From: a virus | IMG/VR virus record: IMGVR_UViG_3300042261_002201 | Coordinates: 1-20,714 of that record | Strand: one strand, 5' to 3' | Length of the DNA: 20,714 bases | In this document: positions 1 to 20,570 of the stretch, piece after piece | Layout: every line of letters starts with the position of its first letter | How positions within the stretch are numbered: the first letter of the stretch is position 1 | The notes under the pieces: model-generated | Told to the model about the DNA's origin: nothing | Seen by the model: the letters and a program-made list of their open reading frames with translations, nothing else | Databases searched by the model: none | Made by a program: the position numbers and the translations under genes

Positions 1-300
1 AGGCGGATCAGACTGACTTCGAGAACAATCTCGACAATATGTACTGGGAGGACCGTCTTGGCGGCAGGTTTAACCGGAAGTGGGAAGACCGTCTAAATGA
101 CCGGAAGATGGATAGAAGACAGGCAGAGGATGAAGCTAGACTTCAAGCACAGGCGGATCAGACTGACTTCGAGAACAATCTCGACAATATGTACTGGGAG
201 GACCGTCTTGGCGGCAGGTTTAACCGGAAGTGGGAAGACCGTCTAAATGACCGGAAGATGGATAGAAGACAGGCAGATGATGAAGCTAGACTTCAAGCAC
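1..300 (+). repeat. 150-bp tandem direct repeat, two visible copies
   Basis: Positions 1-150 and 151-300 are nearly identical; one clear difference is G versus T at 127/277. The unit is a multiple of three and encodes 50 residues rich in Asp, Glu, Arg and Lys, containing MYWEDRLGGRFNRKWEDRLN. The first copy starts at the window edge, so more copies may lie upstream. Near identity implies recent duplication or gene conversion. Confidence 0.95.
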
Positions 301-7553: not shown

Positions 7554-10500
7554 ATGTCACTTTCCGCTACGTATGTTTCATCGTATCAATTCACGGTAGA
7601 TTTAGACCAGACCGGGTCTTTTGTTCCTGGCCGATCCGTTCGAATGAACTGTGGGGTAGACGGGTACAAGTATGGGTACGTGGACAGTTCTGCATATTCC
7701 ACGCTTACCACGGTAACACTTCTTTCGTCCGAGTCGGATGCGCTCACAGAGAACCTGGAATCTGTGGACTACAGTTCCGTTAAGCCCGATTCTACCAACA
7801 CCGGTAACCTTGGGATACACGTACCGATTATGCTTAGAGGCTGGGTTTCCGGCTTGGTGATTTCGATCAAAGATTCTGATGAGATCTATATCTCCAGTGG
7901 TGGAATTCACATCAGCGACGGAACATACGAGCGAGTGTACTTGTCCCCGTCTGTCATTACGAAACAGCTCACCGGTCTTAGTGTGAGCACCCGCTATGCT
8001 GTTTACCTGAAGCCTCCAACGTCAGGACTTACGATCTCATCGGATTGTGTGGAATACTCGTCTACGCTTGCCGCGGAGAGTGCATCGAAGCAGGGTTGGT
8101 ATCATCCGTCCAATACAACATGGAGGTGTATCGGATATGTCACAACCGACTCCGGTGGGTTGATAACCAGCAGGGAAGTGTTGGGTGGTGCTGTTCTGAC
8201 TGGGCGCACCTACGGACAGATATTGTGTGGAGGGACTGGTTCCGGCGAGAACCTTACTTTCACTTCCACTTCGAATGCTACGAAGGGAAGTATCCTGTTT
8301 GGAAGTTCAGGATACGATGAGGCAAACAATAGGCTTGGGGTTGGGACTTCCGCTCCGTCCTCCAGGTTGCATTCTCTTGCAACGACGGAGCAATTGAGGC
8401 TTGGGTACGATGCCAGCAACTACAATGCGTTTACCGTAGGATCTACAGGATCTCTCACGATTGCAGCTACCGGTACTAACCCGAGTATTACACTTACTCC
8501 TGGTGGTACTGGAGTTGTTGCTGCTTCTTCTAATTTGACTATTACAGGATCTTCTAATTCAATTGCTACAGTTGGTTCTGAGTTAATTAGTGCATCGGAT
8601 GATAGAACGTTTGCATCGGATACTGGAGCTTGGACGAAAGGTGCGAACTGGACTATCGGATCTGGTGTTGCTACGCATACTGCTGGTGCGAACAATCTAA
8701 CTTATACTGGATTAACACCGACTGCTGGAGCATCGTATCAGATTAAAGCTACGGTAGTGACTACCGTAGCAGGAACGCTTACTCCTCAAATTGGTGGTGT
8801 AAGTGGCTCTGCTGTTGGACAGTCAACTGGAACATTAACGCAGCATGTTTGGGTTATTGTCGGTACGAATACTACGCAATTCTCTTTCGTTCCAAGCAGT
8901 GCTTGGGCAGGAACAATCGATGATGTAACGATTACGCAGATTACTCCGAGCACTTCGATTCTGAATCTTAAGAACAGTGACGCTACGTCTGGTCCTGAAT
9001 TTCGGTCTGGTGGTTCTGGAATAAATGTAACTGCTATCGGTATTGATTCTGGAAAGCATAGAATAACTGGATCTAATGCTGCTACGCTGATTGGTTATCG
9101 TGCTGGTTATTTATCTACTACCGGGGCTCAAACAGCAATAGGTCATCAATCTGGTTATTCCAATACTACTGGAACTCAAACAGCAATAGGTCATCAGGCT
9201 GGTTATTCCAATACAACCGGAAATCAAACAGCAATAGGATATCAATCTGGTTATTCCAATACTACTGGATATCAAACAGCAATAGGATATCAATCTGGTT
9301 ATTCCAATACTACTGGATATCAAACAGCAATAGGACAATCTGCTGGTTATTACAATACTACTGGAGCTCAAACAGCAATAGGATATTCTGCTGGTTATTA
9401 CAATACTACTGGAACTCAAACAGCAATAGGACATGTTGCTGGTTATTCCAATACTACTGGATATCAAACAGCAATAGGACAATCTGCTGGTTATTCCAAC
9501 ACCACTGGGTATCAAACAGCACTAGGATATCAGGCTGGTTATTCCAATACTACTGGAACCCAAACAGCAATAGGATATCAGGCTGGTTATTCCAATACTA
9601 CTGGATATCAAACAGCAATAGGACATCTTGCTGGTTATTCCAATACTACTGGAACCCAAACAGCAATAGGATATTATTCAGACCATTTAGCACCAACAGC
9701 AATAACGACTTCCAATGCTGTAGCATATGCTGGATCTGGAGTAGATGCAGGAACACATAGGTATAGGGTAGTGTTTGTACTAACTGGAGGTGATACCGCA
9801 GGTTCTGATTCCAAATCAGTAACAACTACTTCAGATAATGACCAAGTTGATTTATCTGGAATACCTACTTACGTTGGACCCAAGACGTGTACGGCAAGGA
9901 AGATCTACCGTACCAAGGCAACATCAAGTTCGTCACCGTACTATTTAGTAGCAACTATTTCTGATAATACGACAACTACCTATTCGGATACTACTCCAGA
10001 TGCATCAATCAGCACATTACTTCCTTCACCAAATGCAATGGCTATTGGATATCAGGCTAAAACCATATTCTCGAATGATGTAGTATTCGGTTCAGATACT
10101 GGTCCTGCATCCAATATATACTTTGGTAAAGGCATCTACAGTGCTACTCCAACAACTACTACCATCTATGGGACTGGCGGATTAGGTACAGACATTGCTG
10201 GTGCTGGTCTGTATCTAGCTGGTGGGAAAGGTACTGGAACTGGCAATGGTGGTGACGTACGAATTCAGGTAGCACTTCCAGGATCTAGCGGTACTACTGA
10301 AAACAGTCTTACGGATGTACTAAATGTAATTGGATCTACTGGATATGTTGGAATAGGAACTGCAACGGCTTCGGCCAAGCTTCATTCTCTTGCAACGACC
10401 GAGCAATTGCGGCTTGGATATGATGCCAGCAACTACAATGCGTTTACAGTAGGATCTACAGGATCTCTCACGATTGCAGCTACCGGTACTAACCCGAGTA

Positions 10501-11832: not shown

Positions 11833-12657
11833 ATGGGGTCTTTGTCCGACTATTCCGAGAATAAGTTGCTGGAACACGTATTCTACTCCGAGCTCACTCC
11901 TCCTGCTACCCTGTATGTTGGGTTGTTTACCGCAGATCCGACAGATACCGGGAGTCTTGCAAACGAGGTCGCAGATTCGAACGGGTATTCCAGGGTAGAG
12001 GTAACGTTCTCATCGTCTTTTAACCGCACGGTTGCCAACGATTCGGACCTGACCTTCCCAGCTACGACTGGATCATGGGGGGATCTGACACACTGGGCCA
12101 TTCTGGATTCTGCAACTCTCGGTAGCGGGAACGTACTAGCTCACGGTTCGCTGTCTGCAACGTTTGCAACGGTTACCGGGAATACCGTCAGAATAGCGGA
12201 GGGTGATTTGTGGGTGAAGATGAATGACTCCACATCCGGATCGGGGTTCACCACATACTTGGCTGACAATCTCCTGAACCTACTGTTCTGCGGAACCAGC
12301 TATAGCGTTCCGTCCACCTATGTCGCACTTTATCACACGGACCTATCAGATTCTTCCGACGATACTACGGATGCCACGGAAGTTTCAGGAACTGGATACG
12401 CTAGAGTCCTGGTCAATCCGAATTCAGGCTCGTCTCCCAAGTGGTCTATCCCATCCAGTGGATCAGTAGAGAATGCCAGTGAGATTTCAATTGGTCCGCC
12501 AACCGGGACATGGACTCAGATTGTTGCTCTTGCCGTGGTAGATAGCAGTGGGGTTGGGAAGGTGCTGTGCTACGACAACAACGTGGTGGACCAGACTCCC
12601 CTTAGCGGGGACACGGTTTCATTCCCTGCCTCCAGCCTGTCAGTCACACTGTCATAG
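11833..12657 (+). CDS. Phage tail protein with two tandem YVGLF/YVALY domains
   Basis: A 274-residue protein made of two related halves. The first opens SDYSENKLLEHVFYSELTPPATLYVGLFTADPTD and the second TTYLADNLLNLLFCGTS followed by VPSTYVALYHTDLSD. In each, a Glu-Val plus G-Y-(S/A)-R-V segment and a W-x-(D/Q)-(L/I)-(T/V)-x-(W/L)-A-(I/V) strand follow. This domain is common in phage tail or fibre-associated proteins, usually as one copy. A GAGGAAAAG ribosome site precedes the ATG. A structural tail role is likely; the molecular function is unknown. Confidence 0.65.
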   Translation: MGSLSDYSENKLLEHVFYSELTPPATLYVGLFTADPTDTGSLANEVADSNGYSRVEVTFSSSFNRTVANDSDLTFPATTGSWGDLTHWAILDSATLGSGNVLAHGSLSATFATVTGNTVRIAEGDLWVKMNDSTSGSGFTTYLADNLLNLLFCGTSYSVPSTYVALYHTDLSDSSDDTTDATEVSGTGYARVLVNPNSGSSPKWSIPSSGSVENASEISIGPPTGTWTQIVALAVVDSSGVGKVLCYDNNVVDQTPLSGDTVSFPASSLSVTLS

Positions 12658-13011: not shown

Positions 13012-13076
13012 AATTTTGGTGAAAGTAGATTGCTTTCCTGATATGCTGTACACGAACCTAAACCATGGAGGGCGGC

Positions 13077-13334
13077 ATGAAAACATTGGCATGTGTGGTT
13101 CTGTCGGCAGTTTTGTGTTTGCAGATAGCCATTACCGGAGAGTGGAATCCGTACGCTACATCGTCAGGAAAGCAGAGGCGGGATGACCGGCAAGTTCACG
13201 GGATACCAGGGAACCCAAATTATGTTCCGGCAGACGATGTCTTGGTGAATACCCGGGATGGGAGTGTTGCGGTTCAGGTTGCTCCGGGTGCGTTCGTGGA
13301 CACCAGGACCGGTCAAGTCATTCCTGGATACTAA
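13077..13334 (+). CDS. Small secreted phage protein, unknown function
   Basis: An 85-residue protein whose N-terminus (MKTLACVVLSAVLCLQIAITG) is a typical Sec signal: one basic residue, a hydrophobic core and a small-residue end. The start was set at 13077 because GGAGGG lies just upstream; the in-frame ATG at 13065 would overlap that site and spoil the signal peptide. The mature part is Pro/Gly- and Asp-rich with repeated TRDG/TRTG turns (VNTRDGSVAVQVAPG, VDTRTGQVIPG), suggesting a short beta-hairpin repeat. No lipobox with a small residue before Cys is visible, so I do not call it a spanin lipoprotein. It is the last phage gene before the foreign cassette. Confidence 0.65.
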   Translation: MKTLACVVLSAVLCLQIAITGEWNPYATSSGKQRRDDRQVHGIPGNPNYVPADDVLVNTRDGSVAVQVAPGAFVDTRTGQVIPGY

Positions 13335-13337
13335 CCC

Positions 13338-13351
13338 ACCCAGCAATGGGT
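13338..13351 (+). promoter_or_regulatory. Hairpin with GCAA tetraloop at cassette left edge
   Basis: ACCCA (13338-13342), loop GCAA, TGGGT (13347-13351) is a perfect 5-bp stem closed by a GNRA tetraloop, four bases after the phage stop codon. No U-tract follows, so it is at best a weak or factor-assisted terminator, or a transcript-end stabiliser. It lies where phage composition gives way to the GC-rich cassette. Confidence 0.35.
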
Positions 13352-13367
13352 ATTCCTGGAGGTGCAT

Positions 13368-13751
13368 GTGGGAGAGATTTTTGAGATCTATGTGAAGACG
13401 CACTTCTCCGCCGCCCACCGACTGGAGGGCTACGCCGGGGATTGCGCCAGGACGCACGGGCACAACTGGCTGGTCGAAGCCTACGTCAAGTGCTCCCGAC
13501 TGAACGAGATCGGGATCGGCATCGATTTCCGCGACATCAAGGAGGCCGTGAAAACGGTCCTGTCTGGACTGGATCACTGCGACCTGAACGAAATCCAGCC
13601 CTTCGACCGGGTGAACCCCACCTCCGAAAACATCGCCAAGCATCTCTATGAAGAGCTTTCCAAGCGGCTCGACAGCGACACGGTGAAGGTGTCGAAGATC
13701 AAGGTCTGCGAGACCCCAGGTGCCGGGGCCTACTACTACGTTGAGGAGTAG
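13368..13751 (+). CDS. queD: QueD, 6-carboxy-tetrahydropterin synthase
   Basis: QueD converts 7,8-dihydroneopterin triphosphate to 6-carboxy-5,6,7,8-tetrahydropterin, the second step from GTP to preQ0. In this 127-residue protein the zinc ligands are H17 (FSAAH), H30 and H32 (THGH); the catalytic cysteine is C26; D69-H70 lie in LDHCDLNE and E115 in VCETPGAG. All hallmark residues of the family are present and the length is normal. The GTG at 13368 is preferred because GGAGG (13358-13362) lies 5 nt upstream; the in-frame GTG at 13362 would overlap that site. It is the first gene of the cassette, and no promoter of its own was seen, so read-through from the phage late genes is possible. Confidence 0.9.
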   Translation: MGEIFEIYVKTHFSAAHRLEGYAGDCARTHGHNWLVEAYVKCSRLNEIGIGIDFRDIKEAVKTVLSGLDHCDLNEIQPFDRVNPTSENIAKHLYEELSKRLDSDTVKVSKIKVCETPGAGAYYYVEE

Positions 13752-13754
13752 TCC

Positions 13755-14450
13755 ATGACGAGCGACAGGAAAGCAGTCGTCCTCTCCAGCGGTGGTCTCG
13801 ATTCCACCACGGTGATGGCCATTGCGCGATCGCAGGACTACGAGGTCTACAGCCTGAGCTTTCGCTACGGGCAGCGTCATGCGGTGGAACTGGAGGCTTC
13901 CCGGAAGGTCGCCATCGCCCTTGGCGCCCGGGAGCACCTGGTTGTGGACGTGGACCTGGGGAAGATCGGCGGCTCGGCCCTCACGGCCCCCATCGACGTG
14001 CCGAAATCCAGGGCCGAGGCGGACATGAGCGCCGACATCCCGGTGACCTACGTTCCGGCCCGAAACACCATCTTCCTCTCCTATGCCCTGGCCTGGGCGG
14101 AGGTGCTCGGGGCATCGGACATCTTCATCGGGGTGAACGCCGTCGACTACAGCGGCTATCCGGACTGCCGACCGGAGTTCATCGAAGCTTTCGAGCGCAT
14201 GGCCAATCTTGCCACCAAGGCCGCCGTCGAAGGCAAAATGACGATCAGGATCCAGACTCCCCTCATCCACATGACCAAAGCGGAAATCATCAAGCGCGGG
14301 ATCGCGCTCGGGGTGGACTACGGCCTCACGCACAGTTGCTACGATCCCTCGCCCGAGGGAAAGGCCTGTGGTCAGTGTGACAGCTGCCTTTTGAGGAAGA
14401 AGGGGTTTAGCGAGGCGGGTGTTGAAGACCCGACCGTATACATAGATTAG
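13755..14450 (+). CDS. queC: QueC, 7-cyano-7-deazaguanine (preQ0) synthase
   Basis: QueC turns 7-carboxy-7-deazaguanine into preQ0 using ATP and ammonia, the last step of the preQ0 pathway. The 231-residue protein has the PP-loop SGGLDST at 12-18, the FRYGQRH motif, [12 protein letters not shown], and the [19 protein letters not shown] substrate region. Four C-terminal cysteines (C195, C205, C208, C211) form the zinc site. Length and motifs are those of an intact enzyme. Only 3 nt separate it from queD, so the two are almost certainly co-transcribed. preQ0 can feed tRNA queuosine/archaeosine synthesis or DNA modification; the downstream dpdA points to DNA. Confidence 0.93.
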
Positions 14451-14514
14451 CCTGCGCCGGCACCAACCCCGGGGCAAGGTGCAACGGGCGAGGCGCGTAC
14501 AGGGGACCTCCGAA

Positions 14515-15468
14515 ATGCTCGATGTCCAGAATCAACCGGGTCTGAACACGATCGACATAGACAAAGTGGGCGTTTGCGACGTGAGCTACCCCATCGAGGT
14601 GCTCGACAAGAACCAGGAGAAGCAGAGCACCATCGCCCAGATCAACATGTACGTGGACCTTCCCCACCGGTACAAGGGGACCCACATGAGCCGGTTCATC
14701 GAGGTCCTGAACCAGTACCGCGGGGAAGTCACCGTGCGGAACATGGGGGAGATTCTTCGAGAGATCGCGAGCAGTCTCGAGGCCAAATCCGCTCACATGG
14801 AACTGGCCTTCAAATATTTCGTCGAGAAGGAGGCCCCTGTTTCCAAGTCCAGGAGTCTCATGGGCTACGATTGCCGCTTCACAGGATGCTGCTCGCCGGA
14901 AAACGGGGAAGATTTCGTCCTGGAGGTGACCGTCCCCGTCATGAATCTGTGCCCCTGCTCCAAGGAAATAAGCGCGAGCGCGGCTCACAATCAACGGAGC
15001 GCCGTCACGGTCCAGTTGCGCTTCGCCGAGTTCGTCTGGATCGAGGACGTCATCACCCTGGTGGAGCGGTCCGCCAGTTGCGATCTCTACGCGCTCCTCA
15101 AACGTCCCGACGAGAAGTACGTCACCGAGCGGGCCTACGAAAACCCCCGGTTCGTGGAGGACATCGTGAGGATCATCGCGGAGGAACTGCTGGCCGACCC
15201 AAAGGTGACCTGGTTTTCCGTGAAATCCATCAATTTTGAGAGCATCCACAACCACAACGCCTACGCCTATGTGGAGAGGGACAAGCGTGCGGAACACTGC
15301 GCGTCGTCCTCCGGAGACCGCCGGCCGCTGAGCGCATCCCGACAGGGAAATGACAGGGGCGGATGCCCCGAATGCGGCAATGACACCGGCTTCTACCATT
15401 GGGATGAGGTCTGTCCCAGTTGCGGCTGGAGCAAACCCCTCGTCCCCTCGGGAAACGAGGAGGATTAG
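14515..15468 (+). CDS. folE2: FolE2-type GTP cyclohydrolase with C-terminal zinc ribbon
   Basis: GTP cyclohydrolase IB makes 7,8-dihydroneopterin triphosphate from GTP, the QueD substrate. Family signatures are the N-terminal DVQ and KVGV segments, THMSRFIEVL, NLCPCSKEIS (C146, C148) followed by AHNQRS, and YENPRFVEDIVRIIAEEL. I chose ATG 14515, with AGGGGA upstream, because the family starts close to DVQ; the GTG at 14479 would add a basic, unconserved leader. The product is 317 residues. The core ends near YAYVERDKR, and the last ~55 residues add a linker plus a C284-x2-C287 / C300-x2-C303 zinc ribbon that the family normally lacks. The gene is 64 nt after queC and 3 nt before the next gene. 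Confidence 0.88.
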   Translation: MLDVQNQPGLNTIDIDKVGVCDVSYPIEVLDKNQEKQSTIAQINMYVDLPHRYKGTHMSRFIEVLNQYRGEVTVRNMGEILREIASSLEAKSAHMELAFKYFVEKEAPVSKSRSLMGYDCRFTGCCSPENGEDFVLEVTVPVMNLCPCSKEISASAAHNQRSAVTVQLRFAEFVWIEDVITLVERSASCDLYALLKRPDEKYVTERAYENPRFVEDIVRIIAEELLADPKVTWFSVKSINFESIHNHNAYAYVERDKRAEHCASSSGDRRPLSASRQGNDRGGCPECGNDTGFYHWDEVCPSCGWSKPLVPSGNEED

Positions 15469-15471
15469 GAC

Positions 15472-15864
15472 ATGAGGATATACCTGGCCGGCCCCATTTT
15501 TCAGTGTGAAGACGACGAGTGCATCCACTGGCGCGAAGAGGTCAAGAGGAGGCTTCCGGACCACGAAGTCCTCGATCCCATGGAGAGGGATTATCGAGGG
15601 AAGACGGACGAGTTTTTTCGTGAAATCGTGGAAGATGATAAGGAGCATATAGACAACTGTGATATTCTGTTGGTCAATCATCTGAAGCCGAGCGTAGGAA
15701 CCTCCATGGAAGTCCTCTATGCATGGGAGAGAGGCAAGCACGTCTTCGTTGTCTGTAACAACGGCGAACTGAGCCCTTGGATGCTCTACCACTGCCACAA
15801 GGTTTTCCGGTTCCTCGACGAGGCCATCGCGCATGTGAAGGACCTGACGGTCACACGAGAATAG
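15472..15864 (+). CDS. Nucleoside 2-deoxyribosyltransferase-like protein
   Basis: A 130-residue protein starting MRIYLAGPIF, the signature N-terminus of the nucleoside 2-deoxyribosyltransferase fold. D64 in NCDILLVNHL and E80 in GTSMEVLYAWERGKHVFVV correspond to the substrate-binding aspartate and nucleophilic glutamate of the family. The enzymes exchange or hydrolyse bases on 2'-deoxynucleosides. A GGAGGA site inside the end of folE2 precedes the ATG by a short spacer, so translation is probably coupled. Within a preQ0/DpdA operon it could make, salvage or destroy 7-deazaguanine deoxynucleosides; that is inference. A related sugar-nucleotide hydrolase function is also possible. Confidence 0.78.
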   Translation: MRIYLAGPIFQCEDDECIHWREEVKRRLPDHEVLDPMERDYRGKTDEFFREIVEDDKEHIDNCDILLVNHLKPSVGTSMEVLYAWERGKHVFVVCNNGELSPWMLYHCHKVFRFLDEAIAHVKDLTVTRE

Positions 15865-15871
15865 GCTTTGC

Positions 15872-16006
15872 ATGGTCACTTGGAAACGACAACTGGTTCA
15901 GCTTGATTCCTCCGACGCCGGAGGAACTGGCAGAAACATTCAAGGCGAAGAGGAAGAAATAGTGCGGGACTGGTTGTCAAACACCGGCAGGAAAGTTCCG
16001 GCATGA
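15872..16006 (+). CDS. Possible 44-residue ORF overlapping dpdA start
   Basis: ATG at 15872 opens 44 codons (MVTWKRQLVQLDSSDAGG...) whose TGA overlaps the dpdA ATG as ATGA. This arrangement favours translational coupling. Against it: no convincing ribosome site precedes it, and another frame over the same bases (to TAG at 15962) reads equally protein-like, ending PPTPEELAETFKAKRKK but with no nearby start codon. The stretch may instead be a decayed gene remnant or a leader. Confidence 0.25.
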   Translation: MVTWKRQLVQLDSSDAGGTGRNIQGEEEEIVRDWLSNTGRKVPA

Positions 16007-18066
16007 GGATTATCGTCATCACATCCTGTACGGGCGAGAAGAAATTCACTCCCGATGCTCCGCTCACCAAGGACGAATTCCTGAGCTTACACAACCCGGG
16101 TGAGCTCGAAGTGTTCGAACAGAGACTGGCTCAGTATCAACTGCCGGCCGAGGAGATGTACACGGGCCAGCAGCACGCCCGGTTGATGCGGGGAGTGCGG
16201 GCGGCTCAGGCGTCCAATGGAAATGCTTCCGTCGAACTGTGGATCGTGTCCGCCGGATACGGGTTGATACCTGCAAGCCGCAAGATCGTGCCCTACGAGT
16301 GCACCTTCCAGGGCATGAAGGAGAAGGAGATCCGCAGTTGGGCGGATCACCTCCGGGTGCCCGGCGAAATCCGAAAGATTCTGGGACAACCGTACGACCT
16401 TGGACTCGTGCTGCTGGGGGATTCCTACCTGAAAGCCTGCGGGCTGGATGAGACCGTGAAGCTCGGCGGTCCGACACTCTTTTTCTGTGGTTCCCTGGCG
16501 GCCCGGAAATTTCCGGAGATTGCGAACGCCCGGACCGTGATCCTTTCCAACCCGGAGGCCAAGCGGTTTTCTTGCGGCCTTGTGGGGCTCAAAGGGGAGC
16601 TCGCTTCCCGCCTGCTCGACAGACTATCCACTGACGCCAAGCTCATTGATCAACTCTTCGACCCGTCCACCGATGTCCTCTCCAGGCTCGACGGAGATCA
16701 ACCCGCACCGGCGAGATTGCAGCAACCCGTTCGGATTCGGCCCGACGTGGACCGGGTGATCGAGATTCCCACCTCCTGGTGGCAAAACCCGCGGCGGGAG
16801 AAGCTGCGCTATTTCATTCCCGAGTGGGATGACCTCGTTGATCCGGAGTACGATTTTGTAACGGACACCCATTCCGGAGGTCGAGGTGAGTGGTCGAACG
16901 AAGTGTATGCGCACCAACTTTACCCGGAACCCAACTACGACGGTATTCTCATATCGCGGGCCGTTGCCGAGAAGAGTAAGAAAAAGACGGCCCGACTGAG
17001 CGAACTGGGCGTTCACCGATACCTGCGGGTACCCAGGGAGTTTCCCATCTTGGGTGACTGCGGCGCTTTCGACTACATCGCTTCGGAAGTACCGCCTTAC
17101 GAGACGAACGATATCCTGGACTATTACACCCGCCTTGGTTTCGATTACGGGGTTTCCATCGATCACCTGATCGTGCCGGCGTTCGAAGCCCAAAAGGAGT
17201 TCCGCTACGAACTGACGATCCACAACGCCGAGCAGTTTCTGAAGGAGCACCGTGCACAGGGTTTACGCTGGGAACCCATCGGAGCCGTCCAGGGGTGGGA
17301 CCCTACAAGTTATGCCAATGCCGCGCGCCGATACGTCGAAATGGGATACCGCTACATCGCCCTCGGCGGTCTCGTTCGCAGTTCAACTCCTGAGATCTTG
17401 CAAGTTCTCGAGAAGGTGCACAAGGTTGTTCCTCAAACGGTTAAAGTCCACCTGTTTGGCCTGGCCCGGTTTCGCGCCATCACCGACTTTGTCCGCCTGG
17501 GGGTTCACTCCATCGACAGCGCCTCTGCCCTGCGAAAGGCCTGGCTGGGAAACAACCTGAATTTCCTCACCATGGACGGGTGGTACTCGGCGATTAGGGT
17601 GCCCCAGGTCCCGAAACCCGGCAAGAGAAGCTTTCGCGCCAAGCGGGTCATCGACAGCGGCGCCCAAAGCGAGGAAGGGCTCCACCGTCTGGAACAGGAT
17701 TGCCTCAGTGGCCTCCGAACGTACGGAACTGGAGCAGGAACCCCGCCATCCTCCCTGCTGGACCTGTTGGTCCAATACGATACCCTCATCGCAGGTGAGC
17801 GCAAAGGCACGCGGGAACGAATCCAAAGGACCCTCGAGGACCGCCCGTGGGAGAAATGCGGTTGCGCCATCTGCAGTCGGTGGGGAATTGAAGTGGCCAT
17901 TTTCCGGGGCAACAACCGAAACCGTCGTCGGGGGTTTCACAATACCCACGTGTTCTATCGGTTGATCGACCGGATCATTGCGGGAGAACGCATCCCGTGG
18001 CTCGATGACGACCCGGCCTCCAATGGCGTCGGGGTCCAGTTGAAGCTCTTTTCCGCCAAGCCGTGA
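16003..18066 (+). CDS. dpdA: DpdA-type DNA transglycosylase with N-terminal DUF6884-like domain
   Basis: The 687-residue product has two parts. Residues 1-~215 (MRIIVITSCTGEKK, an LWIVSAGYGLIP strand, VPYECTFQGM) resemble DUF6884. Residues ~240-687 are a tRNA-guanine transglycosylase fold of the DpdA type: D352 in GDCGAFDYI, SIDHLI, GAVQGW, IALGGLV, HLFGLAR and D505 in HSIDSASA. The zinc cluster is C619, C621, C624 with H646 or H649. Known DpdA enzymes swap guanine in DNA for preQ0, which the upstream genes would help make. The HSIDSASA motif and the preQ0 operon argue for DpdA rather than bacterial Tgt; an archaeal-type tRNA enzyme is a less likely alternative. AGGAAAG precedes the ATG by about 8 nt. 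No frameshift or missing catalytic residue is seen. Confidence 0.8.
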   Translation: MRIIVITSCTGEKKFTPDAPLTKDEFLSLHNPGELEVFEQRLAQYQLPAEEMYTGQQHARLMRGVRAAQASNGNASVELWIVSAGYGLIPASRKIVPYECTFQGMKEKEIRSWADHLRVPGEIRKILGQPYDLGLVLLGDSYLKACGLDETVKLGGPTLFFCGSLAARKFPEIANARTVILSNPEAKRFSCGLVGLKGELASRLLDRLSTDAKLIDQLFDPSTDVLSRLDGDQPAPARLQQPVRIRPDVDRVIEIPTSWWQNPRREKLRYFIPEWDDLVDPEYDFVTDTHSGGRGEWSNEVYAHQLYPEPNYDGILISRAVAEKSKKKTARLSELGVHRYLRVPREFPILGDCGAFDYIASEVPPYETNDILDYYTRLGFDYGVSIDHLIVPAFEAQKEFRYELTIHNAEQFLKEHRAQGLRWEPIGAVQGWDPTSYANAARRYVEMGYRYIALGGLVRSSTPEILQVLEKVHKVVPQTVKVHLFGLARFRAITDFVRLGVHSIDSASALRKAWLGNNLNFLTMDGWYSAIRVPQVPKPGKRSFRAKRVIDSGAQSEEGLHRLEQDCLSGLRTYGTGAGTPPSSLLDLLVQYDTLIAGERKGTRERIQRTLEDRPWEKCGCAICSRWGIEVAIFRGNNRNRRRGFHNTHVFYRLIDRIIAGERIPWLDDDPASNGVGVQLKLFSAKP

Positions 18067-18093
18067 CCTTGTCCGGTATGTCTGGAGTTGTGG

Positions 18094-19284
18094 ATGGATT
18101 TCGATTTCCTCGATCGCTCGTTTCTCGGTGCCGCGAAGCAGGCCGTCGCGGATTTTCGCCAAGCCGTCGAGAAATCGCAGCCGGCGGGGGACGAACTCGA
18201 GCAACTGTGCGAACGAGCCCGGGATTACGGGCACTGCACGACTCTCGGTGAAGATTTCGTGATCGGGGCAATCGACGGCTCGGGGGAATACCCCATTCTC
18301 CAGCAGGACGACGTGTTCGTGCACTTCGTGTCGGCTGCCAGAGCCTGTTACAGGACCGAAAGCGCGCACCAGCACAAACTCTCCACGGTTTGGGGCCGGC
18401 CCGTCATTTTCAAGACATTCGTCGTGATGCGGGACGAGCGGTCTTCTTTGGCGGAATCATACGAACGGTACCTCGACCAGCTCACCGGGCTCTCTCTCGG
18501 GAAGGTCGTCTCGGAAAGCGATTACTGCCGTGTCTTTTCCACATACGGCAAACGGATTCGCAAAACCGACGTCGTCTGGGATGCGATCGCCCTGGCAAGG
18601 GCCTCCCAGATCGCAACCCACGCCTACCAGTTGCGCAGTCTCGCCGAACTGGGGATGGCGGTCCGTCTGCTGGAACGCCGTCCCAAGTATCTCCTCCTCG
18701 ATACCACCCTGGTCTACTTTCTGCTCGGGGAGACCCCCTACCTGCCCGAGATCCTGAAGCGCTACCTCATCTGCCGGGCCAACGCGCAGGGCACCGCGGT
18801 CATTGCCCTCAGCAAGTCTCACAACATTCCCAACGGGGATCTCATCGGGCGCTTCGTGCGGGAGAAGTTCGGCTTCAAAGACCACTGGCACCTTCGACTT
18901 CCGGCGGAAGCCCTGGGGGAGGCCCCGCTTCGTTTCCTGAAGGACAAGGAGGTCCCGCCGAAGCTCTCGGTTTCCTACCTTTTCAAGTTCCACGCGACGT
19001 TCTTTCCCATGCGCATCGATGTGGACGCTGCCTGGTGGCGGGAAAACATCAACCACGATGCGGAACGAGAGGCACAACTCTTTCGCGATCTCGATTACAC
19101 GTGCCACGACATTCGGAGCTACGGGTACCCCTACCCCCTCCACGCAGTCCACCGGTCCGCGAGTTTGACCAAATCCGAGAAGAAGGCGATCCGCGATATT
19201 TTGCTTCAGAACGCCCAGTCCGAGGGCATCCTTCGGGGAGCCTTCATGTCGGAACCTGAAGAAGTGCACAGAGGGGGGATCTGA
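18094..19284 (+). CDS. nurA: NurA-domain nuclease
   Basis: NurA proteins are metal-dependent nucleases that work inside a ring formed by the HerA translocase, resecting or degrading DNA. In the 396-residue product D61 lies in VIGAIDGSGEYP, the characteristic N-terminal motif. D203 lies in YLLLDTTLVYFLL. The C-terminal GYPYPLHAVHRSASL segment carries H350/H353 and is followed by a Lys-rich helix. ATG 18094 is used because GGAG (18084-18087) is 6 nt upstream; the in-frame TTG at 18088 sits too close to it. The gene begins 27 nt after dpdA and ends 2 nt before herA. Adjacent nurA-herA is the usual arrangement for this pair. In a modification operon it could cut unmodified invading DNA (inference). 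Confidence 0.8.
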   Translation: MDFDFLDRSFLGAAKQAVADFRQAVEKSQPAGDELEQLCERARDYGHCTTLGEDFVIGAIDGSGEYPILQQDDVFVHFVSAARACYRTESAHQHKLSTVWGRPVIFKTFVVMRDERSSLAESYERYLDQLTGLSLGKVVSESDYCRVFSTYGKRIRKTDVVWDAIALARASQIATHAYQLRSLAELGMAVRLLERRPKYLLLDTTLVYFLLGETPYLPEILKRYLICRANAQGTAVIALSKSHNIPNGDLIGRFVREKFGFKDHWHLRLPAEALGEAPLRFLKDKEVPPKLSVSYLFKFHATFFPMRIDVDAAWWRENINHDAEREAQLFRDLDYTCHDIRSYGYPYPLHAVHRSASLTKSEKKAIRDILLQNAQSEGILRGAFMSEPEEVHRGGI

Positions 19285-19286
19285 CC

Positions 19287-20084
19287 GTGGATTACGACGA
19301 AATCCTGACCACTCTCGGGCAGGAGGAATACTTCGGGGTGCTCGCCGCGGCCTCGACCACTGAAATCGTGGTCTATGCCCGCAACCATGACACCTCCATC
19401 GGGGACCTCTTCCTCATCCCCTGCGACCGGGGAGGCCGGCGCATCTACATCTTCCGCATGACGGAGTACGCCAACGTGCTGCGCCGGGAGGACGAACTGG
19501 CCCCCATGGCCAAGAACTTGATTGCCATGGATGATTCGTTCTACGCGGACGACTTCGAAACCGACAAACTGCTGCGACTCTCGGGATCACTCCTGGGGTA
19601 TTCCGAAGAGGTGCACACCGGGGGCTGGACCTTCCGTCCCCCGCGAAAACTCCCCGCCCACCTTTCCAAAGTCTACAAGGTCGGTTTCGGGTCCGAAGAG
19701 GAGATCCGGCTACAGGAGTCGTGCCTGGCGTCTTTGCTGAGGAGTCAGCTCGGCGAGGGCGTGTTCGTGGGGGAGCTTCTGGCTGGAGAGAGGGCGCTGT
19801 CGGGTGTCCGGGTCTCTATCCCCGGTGAGTACTTCGCCCACCACCTAGGGGTCTTCGGGCGGACCGGGACTGGGAAGAGCAACATCTTGATGGTGCTCAT
19901 CAATTCCATCTACCGAAACAACCGCGCAGCTTTTACAGATTGTGGATATCCACCGGGGACTGTATCTCCGTCCCGTCTTCTTTGCACGCTTTCACATAGT
20001 CGGGGTGCTCTAGCAAGATTCTACAGTTGCAGAGCACTTTCCCGTCGTGCCGTCGGAACATGCATTGAGGATGGTGCCAATTGA
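19287..20084 (+). pseudogene. herA: HerA-type ATPase, truncated after Walker A
   Basis: A GTG start 2 nt after nurA, with GAGGGGGG upstream, opens a HerA-like protein. The N-terminal ~160 residues form a HAS-barrel (EYFGVLAAASTTEIVVYAR, GDLFLIP). HHLGVFGRTGTGKSN has the Walker A lysine K197. Homologous sequence ends around residue 215 (YRNNRAA, near 19931). HerA proteins normally run several hundred residues more, with Walker B, arginine-finger and C-terminal segments, all absent here. The frame stays open to 20084, adding ~50 unrelated residues antisense to a phage gene. It cannot hydrolyse ATP normally, so either the gene is dead in this genome or the contig is chimeric. Confidence 0.82.
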
Positions 20085-20130
20085 ACGGAACCTTGGTGCA
20101 GATCTCGAACTGTCTCTCTGTGGTAAGCAT
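19933..20130 (-). CDS. Small Cys/His-rich phage protein
   Basis: A 65-residue product begins MLTTERQFEICTKVPFNWHH. C11, H19/H20, C23, C34 and C36 could bind a metal. The start ATG at 20130 shares its A with the TGA of the upstream endolysin gene (TGATG), so translation is probably coupled; a GTG at 20133 is an alternative start. The TAA stop at 19933-19935 lies within a few bases of the cassette boundary, so the gene itself appears intact. No family recognised; its location next to the endolysin suggests a lysis-module accessory. Confidence 0.6.
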   Translation of the reverse strand: MLTTERQFEICTKVPFNWHHPQCMFRRHDGKVLCNCRILLEHPDYVKACKEDGTEIQSPVDIHNL

Positions 20131-20522
20131 CACGGCACCAACTCAAAGTGAGGAAGGTCATCGAACCTGTTCGAACTGAACTTGCCATCCATGTCCCAGT
20201 TCCCACCCCACCGCACCTTGACTCCTCGCTGTTTGGCTATCGCCATGACCGCGCCGGCAAGGAAGTAGAAGCTCTCTCGGTCTTCCCACTTAACCGGGTA
20301 GGGCGCCACATCCACTGCCTCGGCAGGCAGTCGGCAATGCTTGCTGCGCTCCGGCCCCACCTTTGACTTCCCGTCTCTTTGCGCCTTGAGTTGGTCTTCT
20401 ACTGACCGATGTCCTTCCAGAACCGTGAAATCAAAAATCTTAATTGCTTCATTCATGATGTCCTGGAGTTTCTTGTCGCATGTCCCAAGTCTCTCTATCG
20501 ACTTATTGCTGAATTCAGGCAT
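20130..20522 (-). CDS. Phage endolysin, peptidase M15 family
   Basis: A 130-residue peptidase related to T5-type L-alanyl-D-glutamate endopeptidases, which cut the stem peptide of peptidoglycan to release phage. Visible signatures are EGHRSVEDQ (36-44), SKHCRLPAEAVDVAPYP with zinc ligands H62 and D71, and the C-terminal PHFEL with H125 and E127. ATG 20522 is preferred over GTG 20528 because AGAGG lies 5 nt upstream of the ATG. There is no signal peptide, so a holin outside the window would be needed. Family length is normal. It is transcribed toward the cassette and coupled to the small gene downstream. Confidence 0.87.
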   Translation of the reverse strand: MPEFSNKSIERLGTCDKKLQDIMNEAIKIFDFTVLEGHRSVEDQLKAQRDGKSKVGPERSKHCRLPAEAVDVAPYPVKWEDRESFYFLAGAVMAIAKQRGVKVRWGGNWDMDGKFSSNRFDDLPHFELVP

Positions 20523-20570
20523 TTTCACCTCTTTTTTTAAGATGGACGACCAATCATACTACCTGAGCAG

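What the first reader, a model, noticed from the sequence alone, without database searches (positions are those of the whole stretch)
19287..20084. HerA severed after Walker A at an abrupt switch to phage DNA
The herA frame matches its family up to about residue 215 and then, near 19931, becomes antisense to an intact phage gene whose stop codon is only a few bases from the breakpoint. GC content drops at the same place. Either the phage captured a bacterial fragment by illegitimate recombination or two genomes were joined during assembly. Which is true decides whether the phage really carries this cassette.
Basis: seen in the sequence. Interest (0 to 1): 0.7.

Follow-up and report, generated by a model that had tools for sequence, protein, structure and literature searches.

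The report
Phage-borne Dpd cassette with severed HerA
A 6.6-kb bacterial gene set that chemically marks DNA (7-deazaguanine) sits between two convergent phage genes, but the helicase of its DNA-cutting half is cut off right after its ATP-binding loop; this is most likely a real phage capture that keeps the protective mark and loses the restriction motor, although an assembly error cannot be fully excluded without reads.

Summary
The herA frame (19287-20084) matches chromosomal HerA only to residue 213-215, with Walker A intact; Walker B and the whole C-terminal half are missing. A homology-independent change point falls at 19928. Beyond it the DNA is phage-like and antisense to a 66-aa frame (stop at 19933) overlapping an M15 endolysin. 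The cassette (about 13356-19930) encodes QueD, QueC, FolE2, a nucleoside deoxyribosyltransferase (NDT), a DpdC-DpdA fusion, NurA and HerA'. Twelve cellular islands carry DpdCA with full-length NurA-HerA; all lack DpdB.

A natural, phage-resident capture is favoured over a chimera. The cassette is bracketed by phage DNA. Its left break is intergenic; its right break abuts a phage stop codon. The NDT is absent from every cellular island examined, and its best phage match lies in another phage's 7-deazaguanine cluster. NurA and HerA' have diverged far more than DpdCA. A second viral contig carries queC-folE2-DpdCA without HerA. I read it as a modification arm kept and a restriction motor lost. 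Raw reads were not available, so chimera at the right junction is not excluded. No other record shows either junction. Moderate interest: a new variant of the Dpd kind.

The parts
11833..12657 (+). phage virion gene (Gp80-like podophage fibre/head protein), anchors left flank as phage
   Evidence: Pfam PF23140 1.2e-57; phrog_240; 30% full-length match in Desulfofustis phage
13065..13334 (+). last phage ORF before the cassette (89 aa, signal-peptide-like N-terminus), frame intact
   Evidence: ORF; phage-like composition of 13012-13334; no family hit
13335..13361 (.). left junction zone, intergenic; change point 13356; second copy of a 9-bp direct repeat ATTCCTGGA (13320 and 13352)
13362..13751 (+). 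queD (true start probably GTG 13368)
   Evidence: TIGR03367 above cut-off; PF01242
13755..14450 (+). queC
   Evidence: PF06508 1.6e-77; TIGR00364 above cut-off
14479..15468 (+). folE2 (GTP cyclohydrolase)
   Evidence: PF02649 1.2e-94; NF010200 above cut-off
15472..15864 (+). nucleoside 2-deoxyribosyltransferase-like gene (NDT), lower GC, phage-associated
   Evidence: PF05014/PF15891; absent from cellular loci and 10 whole genomes; best phage hit in a 7-deazaguanine cluster
16003..18066 (+). DpdC-DpdA fusion (DUF6884 + TGT), 687 aa
   Evidence: PADLOC DpdC 9.6e-13 at residues 2-111 and DpdA 1.5e-121 at 268-658; NF041059 DpdA above cut-off
18088..19284 (+). nurA-like nuclease, frame intact, unusually diverged
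   Evidence: 28-34% to NurA of 12 islands; weak Pfam NurA
19287..19931 (+). herA': N-terminal 213-215 codons with Walker A
19926..19935 (.). right junction
   Evidence: change point 19928; end of HerA homology
19932..20084 (+). out-of-family read-through of the herA frame on the antisense of phage DNA
   Evidence: no HerA homology
19933..20133 (-). short phage ORF (66 aa), stop 19933-19935, start overlaps endolysin stop
20130..20528 (-). M15 endolysin
   Evidence: phrog_465 9.8e-37; 1428 phage records match

Best explanation
A tailed phage acquired, between two convergent phage genes, the modification genes and part of the restriction genes of a bacterial 7-deazaguanine island (DpdC-DpdA fusion + NurA + HerA). 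Inferred working: FolE2, QueD, a host QueE and QueC make preQ0; the DpdA domain exchanges guanine in DNA for preQ0 and the fused DpdC domain may hydrolyse it to ADG; the mark shields phage DNA from a host island of this type or from other nucleases. HerA lost everything after Walker A, so the NurA-HerA motor/nuclease cannot assemble as a working restriction complex. The phage therefore keeps the mark without the restriction motor. Shown: anatomy, truncation, both junction positions, cellular homologues. Inferred: enzymology, protection, and that the join is biological.
For: (1) Phage DNA on both sides of the cassette; the right flank scores phage-like (+0.034/base; left windows +0.021 to +0.154; cassette -0.10 to -0.02). 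(2) The left break lies in the 2.7% of the left phage part that is non-coding; a frame cut at random into antisense cassette DNA meets a stop within 9 nt only 7% of the time, yet here the phage stop is at the break. (3) The NDT gene inside the cassette is absent from 37 DpdCA loci and from 10 whole genomes, and its best match in the phage collection lies near queC, folE and a TGT in Edwardsiella phage ZHS. (4) NurA and HerA' are far more diverged than DpdCA predicts (z 3.7 and 4.3; no other taxon beyond 1), so the cassette is not a plain copy of a sampled cellular island. (5) An independent 87.6-kb viral contig has queC-folE2-DpdCA, no HerA detected, and a phage-type polymerase and helicase. 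(6) DpdCA keeps 140 of 142 columns that are invariant in the other 12.
Against: No reads, no second record with either junction, no donor island close enough to show the intact herA. The NurA frame is intact and HerA' open, which is not expected of long-useless genes; a divergent, unsampled NurA-HerA lineage would explain the excess divergence equally well. The right flank is only 782 bp, its half next to the junction scores weakly (+0.014), and its genes' GC3 (0.64-0.68) is at the top of the phage range. The cassette has not drifted to phage GC.
Confidence: 0.62

Rival explanations
1. Assembly chimera at the right junction only: the phage really carries the cassette, with a full herA, and the 782-bp endolysin piece was joined wrongly.
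For: HerA' is open to the last codon before the break; the linker after residue 215 is variable in relatives, so a short shared k-mer there cannot be excluded; the right flank is short and cannot be tied to the left phage: none of the five viral records with the endolysin homologue showed the left-flank proteins.
Against: Composition of the right flank is phage-like; the break coincides with a phage stop codon (7% by chance).
Confidence: 0.17
2. The whole cassette is bacterial chromosome joined to phage DNA by assembly at both ends.
For: Sharp composition shift on both sides; cassette genes resemble cellular islands; no other viral contig has the junctions.
Against: Needs two independent false joins, the left one in a 2.7% non-coding target; the NDT gene is absent from the cellular islands; excess divergence of NurA/HerA'; a second viral contig carries the same modification genes.
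Confidence: 0.1
3. A chromosomal island wedged between two prophage fragments (nested or decayed prophages), herA interrupted by the second one.
For: Structural genes on one side, an oppositely oriented lysis gene on the other.
Against: No integrase was seen among the window's annotated frames; phage structural and lysis frames are intact; spacing to the phage stop codons is under 30 nt.
Confidence: 0.08

Closest known systems
Dpd (7-deazapurine in DNA) genomic islands, dpdA-C synthesis plus dpdD-K restriction
   Same: DpdA and DpdC domains, preQ0 synthesis genes, linked to putative restriction genes
   Different: DpdC and DpdA are one protein, there is no DpdB, and NurA-HerA stands where dpdD-K would be; here HerA is cut
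Phage 7-deazaguanine DNA modification (phages 9g, CAjan, Rosebush; PMC6884629)
   Same: phage-encoded FolE/QueD/QueC plus a DpdA
   Different: no QueE; DpdA is of the cellular fusion type (one partial hit, 33%, among 50,697 phage records); restriction genes came along
BREX-Related Capture systems with HerA/FtsK and TGT (PMC12839542)
   Same: pairs a HerA translocase with a TGT for DNA marking
   Different: those have PglZ, DUF6079, STAND NTPase and DUF4007; here NurA, a DpdC fusion and preQ0 genes
HerA-NurA end-resection complex
   Same: adjacent NurA and HerA genes
   Different: embedded in a modification island; HerA lacks most of its motor

Membership tests
Dpd genomic island | DpdA (TGT-like) | tested here: met
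   NF041059 438 bits, cut-off 200
Dpd genomic island | DpdC | tested here: met
   as N-terminal domain of the same protein, PADLOC DpdC 9.6e-13
Dpd genomic island | DpdB (DGQHR/DndB-like) | tested here: not met
   no tblastn hit in the window or in any DpdC-DpdA fusion locus; the same query found DpdB in L047
Dpd genomic island | restriction genes dpdD-K | tested here: inconclusive
   no PADLOC DpdD-K match among the seven cassette proteins, but the record is a fragment; L013 has a DEAD helicase with a DpdF hit
Phage 7-deazaguanine modification cassette | complete preQ0 pathway FolE, QueD, QueE, QueC | tested here: not met
   QueE absent from the window and from L048 as held; found in 7 of the 12 NurA-HerA islands
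Phage 7-deazaguanine modification cassette | modified base in virion DNA | not testable with these tools
   needs mass spectrometry of DNA
HerA translocase | Walker A, Walker B and arginine finger | tested here: not met
   only Walker A present
NurA nuclease | conserved acidic and His residues of the nuclease core | tested here: met
   D63, D145, Y297, H302 conserved with the 12 islands; their catalytic role is by analogy, from memory

The most novel reading that the evidence does not exclude
The DpdC-DpdA fusion with NurA-HerA is an uncharacterised, DpdB-less restriction-modification-like defence system in many bacterial phyla, and this phage disarmed a captured copy by severing HerA while keeping the modification arm as counter-defence.
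Probability: 0.4. Interest if true: 0.62.

Novelty: new variant of a known kind. Interest (0 to 1): 0.45.

Why it matters
If real, it shows a phage in the act of turning a host DNA-marking defence island into its own camouflage: the marking enzymes intact, the restriction motor cut. It also points to DpdCA-NurA-HerA as a Dpd variant that surveys requiring DpdB (PMC11888242 set dpdAB as required) would miss; no held paper mentions DpdA and NurA together.

Tried and rejected
Exact-pattern scans of viral contigs beside both junctions: nothing. Viral-contig scans with HerA', the giant virion protein, the 66-aa ORF and the NurA alignment: nothing usable. Endolysin relatives (L002-L006) do not show the left-flank genes, so they do not tie the two flanks together. 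Donor search in 195 and 379 genomes of two phyla: no close donor. DNA search of 50,697 phage records with the cassette region: none. Rejected: HerA' as a functional short HerA (no Walker B or arginine finger); homology beyond 19931 (none). The Burkholderia phage hit to the 66-aa ORF (E=0.03) is not beside an annotated endolysin and was not used. Promoter and terminator scans were at chance level. Papers on Dpd biochemistry (PMC10164549, PMC10966956, PMC4801273) are not held.

Full report
The window is a complete IMG/VR record of 20,714 bp, most likely a phage fragment. The left 13.3 kb carries phage genes: a giant 2515-aa frame, a tail-spike-like protein and a Gp80-like virion protein. The best full-length match to the Gp80-like protein is in Desulfofustis phage LS06-2018-MD01, at 30% identity. 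The right 0.8 kb carries an M15 endolysin on the opposite strand.

Between them lies a GC-rich cassette (59%): queD, queC, folE2, a nucleoside 2-deoxyribosyltransferase-like gene, a 687-aa protein, a NurA-like protein and the herA frame. The 687-aa protein is a fusion: residues 2-111 match DpdC and 268-658 match DpdA. It is 42-58% identical to the fusion proteins of 12 cellular islands.

Homology: 12 cellular HerA proteins of 597-656 aa align to the window frame only up to residue 213-225, and the multiple alignment ends at NNR; the AIDPHDEF, IEEAPSVLNP and RDISRQGRKFGIG blocks are missing. Composition: a change-point analysis that knows nothing of homology puts the break at 19928 and the left break at 13356. 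GC: a drop is present but uneven. The finding is therefore confirmed.

Where does the cassette come from? A scan of one genome per species found 37 loci with relatives of the DpdC-DpdA fusion; 12 of them, in Planctomycetota, Verrucomicrobiota, Acidobacteriota, Myxococcota, Bacteroidota, Bacillota and Gammaproteobacteria (by record titles), carry NurA and HerA nearby, usually directly next to the fusion, with HerA full length in all 12. Seven of these have a QueE gene nearby; the window has none. No fusion locus has DpdB, while the same query found DpdB in a control locus.

Natural capture or chimera? Reads are not available. For capture: the cassette has phage DNA on both sides; the left break falls in an intergenic gap, although only 2.7% of the left phage DNA is non-coding; the right break falls at a phage stop codon, which a randomly cut frame would meet within 9 nt only 7% of the time. 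The right flank's composition is like the left flank and unlike the cassette, though weakly so near the junction. These two coincidences rest on ORF calls, and the 66-aa frame has no convincing homologue.

Two further facts speak for residence in a phage. First, the deoxyribosyltransferase gene in the middle of the cassette is absent from all cellular loci and from ten whole genomes that hold the island, while its best match in 50,697 phage records (44%) lies in a 7-deazaguanine cluster of Edwardsiella phage ZHS together with queC, folE and a TGT. Second, the restriction genes have diverged out of proportion: relative to DpdCA distances, NurA lies 3.7 and HerA' 4.3 standard deviations above expectation, whereas no other genome departs by more than 1. 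DpdCA itself is typical: 2 of 142 otherwise invariant columns changed, against 11 of 45 in NurA and 12 of 70 in HerA'. The 12 loci were also chosen by DpdCA similarity, which limits the comparison.

An independent viral contig (87.6 kb, L048) carries queC, folE2 and a DpdC-DpdA fusion 57% identical to the window's; no HerA was detected in the whole record, and it has a phage-type DNA polymerase and helicase. Its viral status rests on IMG/VR and these two proteins. So modification genes of this kind appear to travel in viruses without the motor.

Mechanism, inferred: preQ0 is made by FolE2, QueD, host QueE and QueC; DpdA puts it into DNA and DpdC may convert it to ADG, as in known Dpd islands (PMC11888242, PMC12839542); phages use such marks to resist host restriction (PMC6884629). 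HerA without Walker B and its arginine finger should not act as a translocase, so the restriction complex should be dead while the mark persists. NurA alone may be inert or harmful; this is untested.

Verdict: a real capture is favoured at about 0.62, with chimera at the right junction the main rival. It works like a Dpd modification system; it is not filed as a canonical Dpd island, because DpdB was tested and is absent, and HerA-NurA stands where dpdD-K would be.

Noticed in passing
L008:13145-14977 and homologues in L009, L010, L026, L042: A 574-610-aa protein (the L008 member has no Pfam or PADLOC match) lies downstream of HerA in 5 of 12 islands, directly so in L008, L009 and L026; a candidate further component of the system.
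   Followed up: partly
window 13320-13328 and 13352-13360: A 9-bp direct repeat ATTCCTGGA lies beside the left junction; it may mark the insertion event or be chance.
   Followed up: partly
window 1-300: Near-perfect 150-bp tandem repeat at the very start of the contig inside the giant virion gene; could be where assembly stopped.
   Followed up: no
window 8994-9761: 48-bp (16-aa) tandem repeats in the tail-spike-like gene (GYSNTTGTQTAIGYQA type).
   Followed up: no
L048:5458-8505 and 13080-18353: Viral contig with long low-complexity tracts flanking its queC-folE2-DpdCA genes.
   Followed up: no
L048:11983-13083: PAPS-reductase/DndC-like gene directly after DpdCA in the second viral contig.
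   Followed up: partly
L047 (MT835580.1): An unannotated human-gut phage scaffold holds DpdB, DpdA, DpdB, QueE, QueD and QueC homologues; five of the six are 48-68% identical to a Methylobacterium plasmid island.
   Followed up: partly
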